This document shows positions 685 to 7,653 of a DNA stretch of 64,000 nucleotides, piece after piece; the first letter of the stretch is position 1, and each line of letters starts with the position of its first letter. The notes under the pieces are model-generated. The model saw only the letters and a list, made by a program, of their open reading frames with translations, was not told the DNA's origin and did no database searches. This DNA comes from Blastococcus sp. LR1 (GTDB lineage Bacteria > Actinomycetota > Actinomycetes > Mycobacteriales > Geodermatophilaceae). The position numbers and the translations under genes were made by a program. Where the stretch lies: the NCBI RefSeq assembly GCF_020166105.1, contig NZ_JAIUJY010000004.1:496001-560000 (forward strand), given 5' to 3'.

Positions 685-1776
685 TCAGGCGGCCAGGACG
701 ACGCGGTCGCGGCCGTCACGCTTGGCGCGGTACAAGGCACCGTCGGCCTCCCGCAGCAGCTGGCTGAGGCTGGCGGAGTCTCCGACGGCGGTGGCCACCC
801 CGACCGACACGGTCACCGCGAGGCCGGCCAGCGGCGTCGCGGCGACGGCGCGGCGGATCCGCTCGGCGACCCGCTCGGCGGCCCCGGCGTCACGGCCGGG
901 GAGGAGCAGGACGAACTCCTCGCCACCGACCCGGTAGGCGAGATCGGCCTCGCGCAGGATTCCGCGCAGTCGGATGGCCAGCTCGATGAGGACCTGGTCG
1001 CCGCGTTCGTGGCCGTAGGCGTCGTTGACCTGCTTGAAGTGGTCGACGTCGCACATCACCAGGCCGACCGAACCCTCGGTGCCACCGGCGCGCACGGCCT
1101 CGGTGAACCGGGCGGACAGGCTCAGGCGGTTGAGCAGCCCGGTCATCGGATCGGTCACCGCCTCGTCGCGGGAGTCCCGCTCGGCCGACGCGAGGTAGTG
1201 GACGCCGAGGCCCAGGGAGGCCAGCAGTGCGAGGTAGGTGACCAGGTGGACGACCGGCGGGGCCTCGGGGGCCGGCCCGAACGCAGGGGCCAGGAGTACG
1301 GCCAGGGTGGCCAGGCACCCCGATAGCAGACCACCGGCGGCGAGGACCTGCGGGCGGAAGCAGACCGCCTGCGTGGCCACCGGCACGACCAGCAACGGGA
1401 GCAGGGCGCTGGATCCGCCGCCGGTGATCAGCACGCTCACGGCCAGGTTGACCTCGAGTGCGATGAACGCGGCCGCGGTGATCGCCGGGGTGTTGCGCCC
1501 CCGCCGCTGCCAGGCCAGCGCCGCACCCATCGTGCCGAACCCCAGGCCGACGAGGACGAGGAGGGCCGGCCCGTACCAGAACGAGGCGAGGACCTTCGCG
1601 GTGCCGATGGCGGCGCCGAAGTACGGGGCGTGGCGGAATCGCCGGCTCATGTCGGCGTAGCGGCTCCGGTCGGTCAGGTCGCCGCGCAGCCACCGGATCG
1701 CGGCGGACTCGATCGGGGCGGTGGACGCGGGCACACCGGTGGATCGGCACGTCCGGACCGGTACTTGACGCACCAC
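685..1776 (-). CDS. Membrane-bound diguanylate cyclase (GGDEF)
   Basis: The N-terminal half has about five or six hydrophobic segments; the C-terminal half is a GGDEF domain. It has the DPMTGLLNR opening motif and GGEEF at the active site, so it should make cyclic di-GMP from two GTP at the membrane. The sequence READ stands five residues before GGEEF and matches the RxxD inhibitory site for product feedback. No PAS, GAF or HAMP sensor domain is visible, so any signal would be sensed by the membrane part. The start is uncertain: two tandem GTG codons lie at 1771-1776 and an in-frame GTG follows about 14 codons later. It lies 19 bp downstream of the sigJ-like stop. Confidence 0.85.
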   Translation of the reverse strand: MVRQVPVRTCRSTGVPASTAPIESAAIRWLRGDLTDRSRYADMSRRFRHAPYFGAAIGTAKVLASFWYGPALLVLVGLGFGTMGAALAWQRRGRNTPAITAAAFIALEVNLAVSVLITGGGSSALLPLLVVPVATQAVCFRPQVLAAGGLLSGCLATLAVLLAPAFGPAPEAPPVVHLVTYLALLASLGLGVHYLASAERDSRDEAVTDPMTGLLNRLSLSARFTEAVRAGGTEGSVGLVMCDVDHFKQVNDAYGHERGDQVLIELAIRLRGILREADLAYRVGGEEFVLLLPGRDAGAAERVAERIRRAVAATPLAGLAVTVSVGVATAVGDSASLSQLLREADGALYRAKRDGRDRVVLAA

Positions 1777-4180: not shown

Positions 4181-4759
4181 GTGGTGGCGGCGTGGCGTGC
4201 GCGAAACGGGGGCCGCGTGATCGTGGGCGTCTGGGTTCTCTACGGGGTCAGCGCAGTGGCCATGTTCGGCTGGCCCGGCCTGGTCGGTGCGGTCTCCCGG
4301 GCGTGCAGTGGCCGGAGCGCCCTGGACGTCCGCACGGGGTGGACCGCTGGGGACGCGCGTGACCTGGTGGCGGTCTGCGGTTCCGAAGGGCGGGCGGCCC
4401 TCGTTCGACTGCAGCTGCTCGACCTGGTGTACCCGCTGCTCTGCGGCCTGGCCCTGCTGCTCGTGGCGGCCCTGCTGGTCCGGCGGCTGTCCGGCCGGGG
4501 ATGGCGGCTCCTGCTGGTCCCTGCGGTCGCGATGACAGTGCTGGACTACGGCGAGAACGCGGCCGTCTGGACCATCCTGTCGACGTGGCCCGCCGTCGGC
4601 GACATGCCTGCGCTCCTGGGAGGGGTCGCCACCACGGCGAAGCGCGCCGCGGGTCTCGCGGCCTATCTCGCAGTTCCGCTTCTCCTGCTCGCCGTCGGCT
4701 TCGATCGGTTCCGAGCCCGTGGTCCGGCCCAGGTCGGAGCGAGGGCGTCGTCGCGGTGA
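4181..4759 (+). CDS. Four-helix integral membrane protein, divergent from MarR gene
   Basis: A 192-residue protein with four hydrophobic segments: about residues 14-35, 83-103, 112-135 and 153-175. Between the first two is a cytosolic or periplasmic loop with two cysteines (RACSG, AVCGSEG). No family is recognised with confidence. A GGAGG sequence lies just upstream; because it is very close to the first GTG (4181), the next in-frame GTG at 4184 may be the true start. The divergent MarR gene and shared inverted repeat suggest repression by that regulator. Confidence 0.75.
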   Translation: MVAAWRARNGGRVIVGVWVLYGVSAVAMFGWPGLVGAVSRACSGRSALDVRTGWTAGDARDLVAVCGSEGRAALVRLQLLDLVYPLLCGLALLLVAALLVRRLSGRGWRLLLVPAVAMTVLDYGENAAVWTILSTWPAVGDMPALLGGVATTAKRAAGLAAYLAVPLLLLAVGFDRFRARGPAQVGARASSR

Positions 4760-4814
4760 GGGCGGCGCGGCCGATCGGGGGTCGGCCCGCGCCGGCGCGC
4801 ACGGTCCACCGTCG

Positions 4815-5090
4815 TCAGAGCTTCCCGCGTCCCTGGCGGAGCAGCAGCATCCCGAGCGCGGCGCCGTCGGTGCCGAGCGCGTCGCGGAAACGGCCGAGGA
4901 CCTGCTGCTCCCGGGCGAGGTTCAGGCGCGTGCCGCCGCTGGCCTTGCGCAGGACGCCGATCTCCTGGGAGACGGCGAGGCGCCGCTGGACCAGCTCGAT
5001 GATCGCGGCGTCGCAGGCGTCGATCTCGGTGCGCAGCTCACCGATGCGCTCGACGTCGGTGCCGGTGACGGCGACGGGGGGCGTGCTCAT
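4815..5090 (-). CDS. Chorismate mutase, AroQ type, M. tuberculosis Rv0948c-like
   Basis: A 91-residue all-helical AroQ-class chorismate mutase, converting chorismate to prephenate for Phe and Tyr synthesis. Arginines at 20, 37, 48 and 60 fall where the small M. tuberculosis enzyme has its substrate-binding arginines (recalled, not aligned). The C-terminus MLLLRQGRGKL resembles the mycobacterial tail that lets the poorly active enzyme be activated by DAHP synthase, so a similar complex is inferred. The ATG has a good GGAG site 8 nt upstream. A leader peptide with Phe-Phe-Tyr codons and a terminator hairpin precede it. Its position next to pcrA matches mycobacteria. Confidence 0.92.
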   Translation of the reverse strand: MSTPPVAVTGTDVERIGELRTEIDACDAAIIELVQRRLAVSQEIGVLRKASGGTRLNLAREQQVLGRFRDALGTDGAALGMLLLRQGRGKL

Positions 5091-5133
5091 GGGGGTCTCC
5101 TTCGGTCGGATGGCCCGAGACCCCTGAGAACGG

Positions 5134-5165
5134 AAAACGCCCCGGGCTTCTCGGGCCCGGGGCGT
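5134..5165 (-). terminator. Intrinsic terminator in chorismate mutase leader (attenuator)
   Basis: An 11-bp perfect GC stem (5137-5147 with 5155-5165, 7-nt loop) is followed on the minus strand by TTTT and then CCGTT. It points into the chorismate mutase gene, 44 bp before its start and downstream of the short Phe-rich leader frame, the classical arrangement for amino-acid attenuation. The plus strand has no T-run, so it does not belong to pcrA. Confidence 0.8.
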
Positions 5166-5180
5166 CTGTTGCGGCTGTGC

Positions 5181-5243
5181 TCAGCCGGCGGTGACGGACA
5201 CCGGATCCCGGTGGCCGTAAAAAAAGCGAATGGCGGCGAGCAC
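5181..5243 (-). CDS. Putative 20-residue leader peptide with Phe-Phe-Tyr codons
   Basis: A GTG-started frame of 20 codons ending in TGA. Residues 7-9 are Phe-Phe-Tyr (TTT TTT TAC), followed by GHRDP. A perfect 6-bp hairpin (5199-5204 with 5208-5213) begins just after those codons, so a ribosome stalled there would disrupt it. The terminator at 5134-5165 follows the stop codon by about 15 nt. Together these form a leader able to sense charged tRNA-Phe/Tyr and control chorismate mutase. A CAGACT -10-like hexamer ends 7 nt before the GTG, implying a leaderless message. Too small for coding statistics; the call rests on architecture. Confidence 0.7.
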   Translation of the reverse strand: MLAAIRFFYGHRDPVSVTAG

Positions 5244-5250
5244 GGGTCGG

Positions 5251-5256
5251 AGTCTG
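5251..5256 (-). promoter_or_regulatory. -10 hexamer of the chorismate mutase leader transcript
   Basis: CAGACT on the minus strand, seven bases before the leader-peptide GTG, fits the actinobacterial TANNNT-like -10 except at its first base. No clear -35 is visible. Confidence 0.45.
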
Positions 5257-5352
5257 CCACAGCGGGCGCTCCGCGCACCACCTCCGCGGCGCTGTGACGG
5301 ATGGTGCGCGCCCGGCCGGCCTGTCACCCCTCCGGCCTACAGTGGCTCCGTC

Positions 5353-7653
5353 ATGAGCAGCAGCATCCAGCAGTCCCTGCCCGGTACCGCCGCCCTGCAG
5401 CGATCCGCCTCCGGCTCCCTCGGGCGGGAGCTGGACCGGATGCTCGCCGGCCTGAACGGGCCGCAGCGCGACGCCGTCGTCCACGAGGGCGGCCCGCTGC
5501 TCATCGTCGCCGGGGCCGGCTCGGGCAAGACCCGGGTGCTCACCCACCGGGTCGCCTACCTGCTGGGCGCCCGGGGCACGCAGCCGGGCGAGATCCTGGC
5601 GATCACCTTCACCAACAAGGCCGCCGGCGAGATGAAGGACCGGGTCGCCGCGCTCGTCGGGCCGCGGGCCCGGTCGATGTGGGTCTCGACGTTCCACTCG
5701 ATGTGCGTGCGGATCCTGCGCGCCGAGGCCGCGAAGCTGGGCCTGAAGTCCTCGTTCACGATCTACGACCAGGGCGACTCGGTGCGCCTCATGACGATGG
5801 TCGCCCGCGATCTGGACCTCGACGCCAAGCGCTTCCCGGGCCGCAGCCTCGCCAACCAGGTCTCGAACCTGAAGAACGAGCTGGTCGACGAGGAGGACTT
5901 CAGCCCTCAGACGCCGCCGGAGAAGGTGCTCAAGGAGGCGTACACGCTCTACCAGCGGCGCCTGCGCGAGGCGCACGCCATGGACTTCGACGACCTGATC
6001 ATGAACACGGTGCACCTGCTCCAGGCGTTCCCCGACGTTGCCGAGCACTACCGTCGCCGGTTCCGCCACGTGCTGGTCGACGAGTACCAGGACACCAACC
6101 ACGCCCAGTACGTGCTGGTCCGCGAGCTGGTGGGGCCCGAGGGCGGGCCGGTGCCGCCGGCCGAGCTGTGCGTGGTCGGTGACGCCGACCAGTCGATCTA
6201 CGCCTTCCGCGGCGCCACGATCCGCAACATCGACGAGTTCGAGCGCGACTACCCGCACGCGACGACGATCCTGCTGGAGCAGAACTACCGCTCCACCCAG
6301 CGGATCCTCAAGGCCGCGAACACGGTCATCGCGAAGAACACCGGTCGCCGGCCGAAGAGCCTGTGGACCGACTCCGGCGACGGCGACCTCATCGAGGGCT
6401 ACGTCGCGGACAACGAGCACGACGAGGCCGCCTGGGTCGCCGAGCAGATCGATGCCCTGGTCGACGAGGGCAAGGCCCAGCCGAAGGACATCGCGGTCTT
6501 CTACCGCACGAACAACGCCTCGCGAGTGTTCGAAGAGGTCTTCATCCGCGTCGGCATGCCCTACAAGGTCGTCGGCGGCGTCCGGTTCTACGAGCGCAAG
6601 GAGGTCCGCGACGCGCTGGCCTACCTGAAGCTGGTGGCCAACCCGGCCGACGTCGTCAGCCTGCGCCGGATCATCAACGTGCCCAAGCGCGGCATCGGCG
6701 ACAAGGCCGAGTCGTGCATCGAGGCGTTCGCCGACCGCGAGCGGATCGCGTTCGGGACGGCGCTGCGGCGGTGCGGCGAGATCAACACGCTGGCGACCCG
6801 TTCGCTCAAGGCGCTCCAGGAGTTCGTCGCGCTGCTCGAGGAGTTCGAGCAGCTGGTCGAGACCGGCTCGGGCCCTGCGGCGCTGCTGGAGAGCATCCTC
6901 GACCGCACCGGCTATCTCGCCGAGCTGCAGGCGAGCACCGATCCGCAGGACGAGGGCCGTGTAGACAACCTCAACGAGCTGATCTCGGTGGCGGCGGAGT
7001 TCGAGGCGGCCAACCCCGGCGGCACCGTCACCGCCTTCCTCGAGCAGGTCTCGCTGGTGGCCGACGCCGACCAGATCCCGGTGACCGGCGACGACGCCGG
7101 CGTGGTCACGATGATGACGCTGCACACCGCGAAGGGCCTGGAGTTCCCGGTCGTCTTCGTGACCGGCATGGAGGACGGCGTCTTCCCGCACCTGCGTGCG
7201 CTCGGTGACCCCCGCGAGCTGGAGGAGGAGCGCCGGCTGGCCTACGTGGGCATCACCCGCGCCCGGGAGCGGCTCTTCATCTCCCGCGCGACCGTGCGGA
7301 CCAGCTGGGGGCAGCCCGCCTACAACCCGCCGTCGCGGTTCCTCGACGAGATCCCGGCCGAGACGATCCACTGGGAGCGGCTGGACCCGACGCCCGCGCC
7401 GTCCACCGGCTACAAGTCGGCGCAGACGCGGGTCGCGGCCACCGGGCTGTCCACGGGCGGTCTGCGCGGGGGTGCCGGCAACCGTCCGGTGATCTCGGTG
7501 GAGGTCGGCGACCGGGTCAGCCACGACGCCTTCGGCCTCGGCACGGTGGTCGAGGTGACCGGCGTGGCCGACAAGGCCCAGGCCACGGTCGACTTCGGTT
7601 CCGGCGGCACCAAGCGCCTCGTCCTCCGCTACGCCCCCCTCGTCAAGCTCTGA
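5353..7653 (+). CDS. pcrA: ATP-dependent DNA helicase PcrA/UvrD1
   Basis: A 766-residue superfamily 1A 3'-5' helicase for nucleotide excision repair and clearing proteins from DNA. Q motif LNGPQ (34-38), Walker A GAGSGKT (54-60), motif II VDEYQDTN, motif III region GDADQSIYAFRGA, motif IV QNYRST, motif V region TLHTAKGLEF and motif VI YVGITRA are all present. The last 50 residues (GDRVSHDAFGLGTVVEV) form the tudor-like domain that binds RNA polymerase in PcrA proteins. Length is normal. A TACAGT hexamer (5338-5343) ends 9 nt before the ATG with no Shine-Dalgarno, suggesting near-leaderless transcription. Neighbours match M. tuberculosis uvrD1. Confidence 0.97.
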   Translation: MSSSIQQSLPGTAALQRSASGSLGRELDRMLAGLNGPQRDAVVHEGGPLLIVAGAGSGKTRVLTHRVAYLLGARGTQPGEILAITFTNKAAGEMKDRVAALVGPRARSMWVSTFHSMCVRILRAEAAKLGLKSSFTIYDQGDSVRLMTMVARDLDLDAKRFPGRSLANQVSNLKNELVDEEDFSPQTPPEKVLKEAYTLYQRRLREAHAMDFDDLIMNTVHLLQAFPDVAEHYRRRFRHVLVDEYQDTNHAQYVLVRELVGPEGGPVPPAELCVVGDADQSIYAFRGATIRNIDEFERDYPHATTILLEQNYRSTQRILKAANTVIAKNTGRRPKSLWTDSGDGDLIEGYVADNEHDEAAWVAEQIDALVDEGKAQPKDIAVFYRTNNASRVFEEVFIRVGMPYKVVGGVRFYERKEVRDALAYLKLVANPADVVSLRRIINVPKRGIGDKAESCIEAFADRERIAFGTALRRCGEINTLATRSLKALQEFVALLEEFEQLVETGSGPAALLESILDRTGYLAELQASTDPQDEGRVDNLNELISVAAEFEAANPGGTVTAFLEQVSLVADADQIPVTGDDAGVVTMMTLHTAKGLEFPVVFVTGMEDGVFPHLRALGDPRELEEERRLAYVGITRARERLFISRATVRTSWGQPAYNPPSRFLDEIPAETIHWERLDPTPAPSTGYKSAQTRVAATGLSTGGLRGGAGNRPVISVEVGDRVSHDAFGLGTVVEVTGVADKAQATVDFGSGGTKRLVLRYAPLVKL

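What the first reader, a model, noticed from the sequence alone, without database searches (positions are those of the whole stretch)
5134..5256. Phe/Tyr attenuation leader in front of chorismate mutase
Read on the minus strand, a -10-like hexamer is followed after 7 nt by a 20-codon frame with consecutive Phe-Phe-Tyr codons, a small hairpin starting just after them, a stop, and then an 11-bp GC hairpin with TTTT pointing into chorismate mutase, whose product leads to Phe and Tyr. The parts and order fit ribosome-mediated attenuation. I could not derive the antiterminator pairing by hand. The first coding base would be the transcript's 5' end, an unusual leaderless sensor.
Basis: partly seen in the sequence, partly recalled or inferred. 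Interest (0 to 1): 0.7.

Follow-up and report, generated by a model that had tools for sequence, protein, structure and literature searches.

The report
Phe/Tyr attenuator before chorismate mutase
A 20-codon leader with phenylalanine and tyrosine codons, probably starting at the very first base of the RNA, sits in front of the chorismate mutase gene with a terminator between them; the same arrangement is kept in many actinobacteria, so it is very probably a real starvation sensor that switches this gene on when phenylalanine or tyrosine runs short.

Summary
On the minus strand a CAGACT -10 lies 7 nt before GTG 5243; the 20-codon frame VLAAIRFFYGHRDPVSVTAG ends at 5181; a 12-bp terminator hairpin (5136-5166) stands before chorismate mutase (5090-4815). 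It is far beyond chance: the arrangement recurs in 22 of 22 examinable genomes of the genus; a covariance model finds it in 109 of 112 genomes of the family; 119 of 121 leaders read individually precede chorismate mutase, as do 115 of 117 hits of an exact pattern scan (the other stretches end too soon). Mycobacteria and another genus of the class have it too. What is conserved is Phe-x-Tyr, not FFY. The missing antiterminator was found: loop and right arm of the first hairpin pair with the terminator's left arm, and the two halves co-evolve. The leader frame also folds into one hairpin that pairs the start region with the stop region and leaves the Phe codons unpaired. Best explanation: classical ribosome-mediated transcription attenuation with a probably leaderless leader peptide. 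A new member of a known kind; no report of it was found in the papers that could be searched. Nothing has been tested at the bench.

The parts
5251..5256 (-). -10 hexamer CAGACT (context TGTGGCAGACT), 7 nt before the start codon
   Evidence: Sequence. CA[GC]A[CA]T with 6-7 nt spacing in the 22 leaders of the genus; mostly similar in the other loci read.
5181..5243 (-). leader ORF, GTG start, 20 codons VLAAIRFFYGHRDPVSVTAG, TGA stop; start codon probably at the first base of the transcript
   Evidence: frame kept in 22 of 22 examinable genomes of the genus, length differences inside the frame in multiples of 3.
5217..5225 (-). control codons TTT TTT TAC (Phe-Phe-Tyr); F-x-Y is what is conserved
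   Evidence: TTT 109 of 116 at the F position and TAC 110 of 116 at the Y position; TTT is 3 of 366 Phe codons in 40 long ORFs of the window, chosen with a GC3 filter that itself disfavours TTT.
5194..5218 (-). hairpin 1:2 (tip), starts inside the Tyr codon
   Evidence: Fold -14.8 kcal/mol; compensatory changes over 49 divergent sequences.
5177..5243 (-). extended leader hairpin: 5243-5234 (start codon included) with 5187-5177 (around the stop codon), both Phe codons in the internal loop
   Evidence: MFE; start region and stop region co-evolve over 15 groups; start codon paired with p>0.5 in 114 of 151 leaders, 82 of the 151 being of the window's family.
5156..5205 (-). antiterminator: 5205-5201 and 5196-5193 with 5166-5163 and 5160-5156, stop-codon hairpin 5187-5172 at its apex
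   Evidence: co-evolution of the two halves. In the window alone it is no more stable than shuffles (z -0.77).
5134..5167 (-). terminator: stem 5166-5155 / 5147-5136, TTTT 5137-5134
   Evidence: -26.8 kcal/mol, z -5.95; compensatory changes.
5090..5103 (-). Shine-Dalgarno GAAGGAG and first base of the ATG of chorismate mutase
   Evidence: Sequence.
4815..5090 (-). chorismate mutase, AroQ type (91 aa), the gene controlled
   Evidence: TIGR01808 72.8 bits (cut-off 52.15), NF005894 97.9 bits (cut-off 73); the only CM_2 match in the genome.

Best explanation
It is a ribosome-mediated transcription attenuator, of the trp/pheA type, controlling chorismate mutase by the supply of charged tRNA-Phe and tRNA-Tyr. 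Transcription starts at the G of GTG 5243 (inferred from the -10 spacing). A ribosome initiates directly on this 5' end. If Phe and Tyr are plentiful it runs to the stop codon and covers the right arm of hairpin 1:2 and the stop region, so the terminator 5135-5167 forms and RNA polymerase stops before the gene. If it stalls at the Phe or Tyr codon it keeps the left side of the leader hairpin open; the freed loop and right arm (5205-5193) pair with the left arm of the terminator (5166-5156), the terminator cannot form, and chorismate mutase is made. If no ribosome initiates, the complete leader hairpin forms and the terminator forms by default. Shown here: the parts, their order, their conservation, and the co-evolution of leader hairpin, antiterminator and terminator. 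Inferred: transcription start, stalling, termination, response to starvation.
For: Parts at exact coordinates. Genus: 22 of 22 examinable genomes; in the 23rd, G018, the contig with chorismate mutase begins inside the gene and a leader lies on another contig. Family: 109 of 112 genomes by model R1, 12 of 12 genera, 95 of 96 among nearly complete genomes. 119 of 121 individually read leaders have chorismate mutase downstream on the same strand; the other two stretches end before or inside the gene. Class: of 30 fetched hits of model R2, two are of the own genus; 27 of the other 28 precede chorismate mutase. Covariation of tip and terminator: 55 cells with changes on both sides against 22.0 in shuffles, score 0.152 against 0.080, 0 of 500 for both. 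Antiterminator: native halves gain -12.4 kcal/mol, swapped halves -8.6, 0 of 20,000 permutations (52 loci); with one leader per family, 11 families, advantage 3.5 kcal/mol, permutation fraction at most 0.003 in 40 draws. TTT is the Phe codon in 109 of 116 leaders. The leader is found with chorismate mutase also where my test found no divergent UvrD/PcrA next door.
Against: No experiment. The U run after the terminator is short (four T here; 2-4 T in the 8 nt after the called stem in 86 of 121, 0-1 in 20), and one search found no terminator by its stricter rule. Two of the sterner covariation measures are weak: 9 pairs with a change on both sides (17 of 500 shuffles reach it) and 27 further pair types (86 of 500). 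The window's antiterminator alone is not better than shuffles (z -0.77, 43 of 200 as stable); in the native-versus-swapped test 24 of 52 leaders rank in the best tenth, so the signal is an average. With the ribosome placed at Phe instead of Tyr, 3 of 25 leaders (L127, L128, L129) keep the tip hairpin. In the 25 full sequences folded the terminator wins on energy, so control must be kinetic. The start codon is itself predicted to be paired, which should hinder initiation on a finished leader. Ribosome footprints were assumed from other bacteria. The script that located leaders required an aromatic motif and the pattern scan required F-x-Y, so those FxY counts are partly circular. 139 of 298 genomes of the order had no R1 match. 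No -35 element is obvious in the window.
Confidence: 0.9

Rival explanations
1. The leader peptide regulates chorismate mutase by ribosome stalling, but the switch is Rho-dependent termination or translational coupling rather than the intrinsic hairpin.
For: The U run is short and variable, and the S. lividans paper describes leader peptides without a typical intrinsic terminator (PMC8079986, passages).
Against: The terminator stem is conserved with compensatory changes, its left arm co-evolves with the leader, and chorismate mutase has its own Shine-Dalgarno about 78 nt beyond the leader stop.
Confidence: 0.07
2. The short transcript is an independent small RNA or small-protein gene with its own terminator, and its place before chorismate mutase is incidental.
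For: It has its own -10, start, stop and terminator; the peptide end GHRxPVSV is nearly constant within much of the family.
Against: 119 of 121 and 115 of 117 copies precede chorismate mutase, also where UvrD/PcrA was not found next door. Outside the family the residues after FxYG change (GTGSPAAV, GNRTPAPV, GYRSAVPV) while the hairpin is kept, so the RNA rather than the peptide seems to be under selection.
Confidence: 0.02
3. The conserved hairpins are only the tail of the divergent UvrD/PcrA promoter region or an ordinary terminator, and the frame is fortuitous.
For: UvrD/PcrA is divergent and adjacent in 71 of 98 loci with at least 900 nt upstream.
Against: The frame, the FxY codons and the -10 spacing are kept over families, with length differences in multiples of 3 within the genus. 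Of the 27 loci where the test did not find UvrD/PcrA adjacent, 26 still have the leader before chorismate mutase (not L187); a few of the 27, such as L249 and L258, may be misses of the test.
Confidence: 0.01

Closest known systems
pheL-pheA attenuator of Escherichia coli (chorismate mutase/prephenate dehydratase)
   Same: Leader peptide upstream and control of the chorismate mutase step by charged tRNA-Phe (PMC11802643, passages).
   Different: Ribosome binding site and a leader rich in Phe only (recalled); bifunctional enzyme. No Rfam family matched here. Here the peptide is probably leaderless, has Phe and Tyr codons, and precedes a stand-alone AroQ enzyme.
aroR-aroF attenuator of Corynebacterium glutamicum
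   Same: Actinobacterial attenuator of the aromatic pathway with Phe-Tyr-Phe in the leader (PMC4046766 and PMC11802643, passages).
   Different: It precedes DAHP synthase and is reported to respond to Phe but not Tyr; sequence relation to the present leader was not tested.
leaderless leader peptides of actinobacteria (S. lividans leuL, trpL, ilvL; mycobacterial poly-Cys short ORFs; C. glutamicum ilvBNC)
   Same: Start codon at or near the 5' end of the RNA or no ribosome binding site, short ORF with control codons before the regulated gene (PMC8079986 passages; PMC4046766 passages and its reference to Morbach 2000; Canestrari 2020 seen only as cited, paper not held).
   Different: None of the eight S. 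lividans leaders described in that paper's passage is for Phe or Tyr.
ilvB1NC attenuator of Mycobacterium tuberculosis
   Same: Leader ORF, terminator/antiterminator switch with experimental support (PMC13236596, passages).
   Different: Branched-chain codons and a 166-nt leader; another operon.

Membership tests
ribosome-mediated transcription attenuator | short ORF with codons for the end product of the pathway | tested here: met
   FxYG in 116 of 121 leaders, FY-type in the other 5.
ribosome-mediated transcription attenuator | lies between promoter and a gene of that pathway | tested here: met
   Chorismate mutase downstream in 119 of 121 and 115 of 117.
ribosome-mediated transcription attenuator | intrinsic terminator before the gene | tested here: met
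   Stem -26.8 kcal/mol, covariation; U run short.
ribosome-mediated transcription attenuator | antiterminator that excludes both the first hairpin and the terminator | tested here: met
   Predicted in 25 of 25 leaders folded with the ribosome at Tyr, 22 of 25 at Phe; co-evolving halves. Computation only.
ribosome-mediated transcription attenuator | expression rises when the cognate tRNA is uncharged | not testable with these tools
   Needs starvation experiments.
leaderless leader peptide | start codon at the 5' end of the RNA | tested here: inconclusive
   -10 to RTG spacing mostly 6-7 nt over families and no Shine-Dalgarno seen by eye; no 5'-end data.
Rfam families (T-box, proteobacterial amino-acid leaders and others) | match to a curated covariance model | tested here: not met
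   Nine matches up to E 5 in window 4600-5700, none near its gathering score and none an amino-acid leader.
AroR-type leader of C. glutamicum | precedes DAHP synthase | tested here: not met
   The present leader precedes chorismate mutase; the genome's DAHP synthase II and prephenate dehydratase have no F/Y leader in the 420 nt upstream that were read.

The most novel reading that the evidence does not exclude
The attenuator is a double sensor of a kind not described: because the start codon at the very 5' end is built into the base of the leader hairpin, a ribosome has only the time RNA polymerase needs to make some 60-70 nt to initiate; after that the start is locked by the stop region and termination is the default. 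The element would then measure leaderless initiation capacity as well as Phe and Tyr charging, with rare UUU as a deliberately slow codon, and would be the main Phe/Tyr switch of chorismate mutase over much of the class. The lock is predicted strongly in the window's family and weakly in mycobacteria.
Probability: 0.25. Interest if true: 0.75.

Novelty: new member of a known kind. Interest (0 to 1): 0.52.

Why it matters
[quoted passage not shown] lividans in 2021 include none for Phe or Tyr (PMC8079986, passage). Here such an element is found before chorismate mutase, the branch point to both amino acids, in Geodermatophilaceae, Pseudonocardia, Nakamurella, Rhodococcus, mycobacteria and another large genus of the class. 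It gives a ready set of natural variants for testing how ribosomes initiate on and stall in leaderless messages, and whether both Phe and Tyr are read.

Tried and rejected
Rejected or led nowhere: Rfam at E<=5 gave only unrelated matches. The general promoter/terminator scan was uninformative. NCBIfam has no family for the 20-aa leader. DAHP synthase II and prephenate dehydratase of the same genome have no F/Y leader in the stretch read. Of the 10 R2 matches in the own genome one is the leader, two lie on the opposite strand of the same place, four weak ones that I read look by eye like other genes' terminators or a stretch with a tRNA, and three were not read. A first chorismate mutase finder by regular expression found 27 of 121 and was replaced by an HMM. 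A first UvrD search used a wrong frame and was repeated. The first count for the g19 and g97 sets (23 of 25, 23 of 26) missed two loci by a wrong offset, corrected to 24 of 25 and 24 of 26. The first named count used the 80 listed loci (78 of 80); all 117 were counted. R2 tallies of 272 of 298 and 248 of 394 include unverified weak hits and are not used as prevalence.

Dropped rows: L164 was left out of the co-evolution tests (its terminator call was wrong); the chimera test used 52 of 121 loci chosen for diversity; alignment A2 used 49 of 121; the start/stop-stem tests used 120 of 121 plus 17 mycobacterial and 14 g97 leaders, picked by hand from the 24 and 24 verified ones. Some terminator calls are plainly off, so its T counts are rough.

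Full report
Observation. On the minus strand, CAGACT (5256-5251), 7 nt, GTG 5243, a 20-codon frame VLAAIRFFYGHRDPVSVTAG with TTT TTT TAC at 5225-5217, TGA 5183-5181, a terminator hairpin 5166-5136 with TTTT 5137-5134, then GAAGGAG and the ATG of a 91-aa protein at 5090. The protein is an AroQ chorismate mutase (TIGR01808 and NF005894 above their cut-offs) and is the only CM_2 match of the genome. In the window one of 157 RTG triplets with such a -10 has a short frame with three aromatic residues in a row, and it has a hairpin with T's behind it: this one. Divergent from it runs UvrD/PcrA, whose start is at 5353.

Conservation in the genus. A search with the protein found chorismate mutase in 23 of 23 genomes of the genus. 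In one genome the contig begins inside the gene; in the other 22 the leader lies upstream with the same frame, CA[GC]A[CA]T 6-7 nt before GTG, the hairpin and the terminator, and a leader of the 23rd lies on another contig. Middle residue and length vary (FFY, FYY, and FAY in the three leaders that are 5 or 6 codons longer); length differences inside the frame are multiples of 3.

Conservation beyond. A covariance model of the 22 leaders (R1) matched 109 of 112 genomes of the family, 12 of 12 genera; the three without a match include one nearly complete genome, G072. In the order it matched 159 of 298 sampled genomes at E<=0.05, 51 of the 159 being of the family, so 108 of 247 outside it. I fetched 60 family and 39 order places and read them with the 22 of the genus: 121 leaders, four of their starts set by hand; 119 have chorismate mutase downstream on the same strand. 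A second model from 49 divergent leaders (R2) reached the class. Of 30 fetched class-level hits two are of the own genus; 27 of the other 28 precede chorismate mutase, and 15 of the 16 that lie outside the order do, the exception being L187. In two further genera, 27 sampled genomes each, the best hit precedes chorismate mutase in 24 of the 25 genomes with a hit (g19) and in 24 of 26 (g97). Genera among the 80 titles shown: Blastococcus, Geodermatophilus, Modestobacter, Trujillonella, Actinomycetospora, Pseudonocardia, Nakamurella, Rhodococcus, Mycobacterium, Mycolicibacterium, Mycolicibacter, and one record labelled unverified Bacillus.

What is conserved. The control motif is Phe-x-Tyr-Gly: 116 of 121 leaders, with x being Y 47, F 40, S 17, A 6, P 4, L 2; the other five have FYG (three), FYFG or FYVG. 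The finder required an aromatic motif. Of the 23 g19 leaders printed, 21 have FFYG, one FFHG (L333) and one FFDG (L345); the 23 g97 leaders printed have FTYG, which is again F-x-Y. The Phe codon is TTT in 109 of 116, although TTT is 3 of 366 Phe codons in 40 long ORFs of the window; those ORFs were chosen with GC3 above 0.85, which disfavours TTT somewhat. Beyond the motif the peptide changes outside the family while the hairpin is kept.

RNA structure. Three elements exclude one another. Leader hairpin: the tip 5218-5194 and, below it, the first ten bases of the RNA paired with 5187-5177 around the stop codon, leaving both Phe codons in an internal loop. Antiterminator: loop and right arm of the tip with the left arm of the terminator, a stop-codon hairpin at its apex; predicted in 25 of 25 leaders folded with a ribosome at Tyr, and in 22 of 25 with it at Phe, where L127, L128 and L129 keep the tip. 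Terminator. On 49 divergent sequences tip and terminator show 87.7% of cells paired, 55 cells with changes on both sides against 22.0 expected by shuffling and a covariation score of 0.152 against 0.080, none of 500 shuffles reaching these; but 9 pairs with changes on both sides are reached by 17 of 500 and 27 further pair types by 86 of 500, and related sequences can exceed shuffles without structure. Slid versions score 0.031-0.082. Swapping 5' and 3' halves between species lowers the folding gain from -12.4 to -8.6 kcal/mol (52 loci, 0 of 20,000 permutations; the native partner is in the best tenth for 24 of 52). With one leader per family the advantage is 3.5 kcal/mol (11 families; range 2.4-4.5 over 300 draws; permutation fraction median 0.0000, maximum 0.0030 over 40 draws). 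A like test on start region and stop region as duplexes gives 4.0 kcal/mol over 15 groups from 13 families, 0 of 1,000 permutations in each of 40 draws. The start codon is paired with the stop region with p>0.5 in 114 of 151 leaders; 82 of the 151 are of the window's family (group mean 0.91), nine of 15 groups have a mean above 0.5, and mycobacteria have 0.11. Against: in the window the antiterminator alone is not better than shuffled sequence (z -0.77), and the complete RNAs folded prefer the terminator, so the switch must work during transcription.

Mechanism. A ribosome stalled with the Tyr codon in its A site would cover the left arm of the tip (footprint assumed from other bacteria), freeing the right arm for the antiterminator; one that reaches the stop codon would cover the right arm and let the terminator form; without translation the leader hairpin forms and the terminator follows. 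This is the logic of trp and pheA. I see no Shine-Dalgarno before the leader, and the -10 spacing fits a transcript that starts at the start codon; S. lividans data place the -10 on average 6.3 nt before the start of transcription (PMC8079986, passage).

Known or new. Leader-peptide attenuation is textbook; pheL-pheA controls chorismate mutase/prephenate dehydratase in E. coli, and aroR with Phe-Tyr-Phe controls aroF in C. glutamicum, responding to Phe but not Tyr (PMC11802643, passages; PMC4046766, passages). Leaderless leader peptides are known in actinobacteria. I found no report of an attenuator before chorismate mutase in actinobacteria: searches, of which I saw listings, and passages of six papers. 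Limits: most subscription papers are not held; Neshat 2014 and Canestrari 2020 were not read; the list of leaderless ORFs of M. tuberculosis in the supplement of PMC9094748 was not open to me and may contain such a frame without the interpretation. The 2005 survey states that none was seen for phenylalanine or tyrosine operons (PMC1262725). It is therefore a new member of a known kind, as far as could be searched, with wide distribution and a start-in-the-stem design that deserves a test.

Noticed in passing
window 5331-5355, + strand: UvrD/PcrA (start 5353) has TACAGT 9 nt before its ATG, and a like stretch (CACTGTAAGCC on the other strand) is seen in many of the upstream regions printed for the genus: probably a second, nearly leaderless promoter back to back with the leader's.
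   Followed up: partly
L187, around 1501-1601 (minus strand of the locus): Model R2 matches (E 6.9e-12) a short frame ending NCVLSYGLKP followed by a strong terminator with no chorismate mutase behind it; possibly another attenuator or just a terminator.
   Followed up: no
L333, L345, L199, L205, L343: Some mycobacterial leaders have lost Tyr (FFH, FFD), have FPY or FCY, or look longer (starts uncertain), which may mean that Phe is the older or stronger input.
   Followed up: no
L201: A record labelled unverified Bacillus sp. AZ43 carries the leader VLATVSFFYGHRDPVSVTAG before chorismate mutase, letter for letter that of several Geodermatophilaceae: the label is probably wrong.
   Followed up: no
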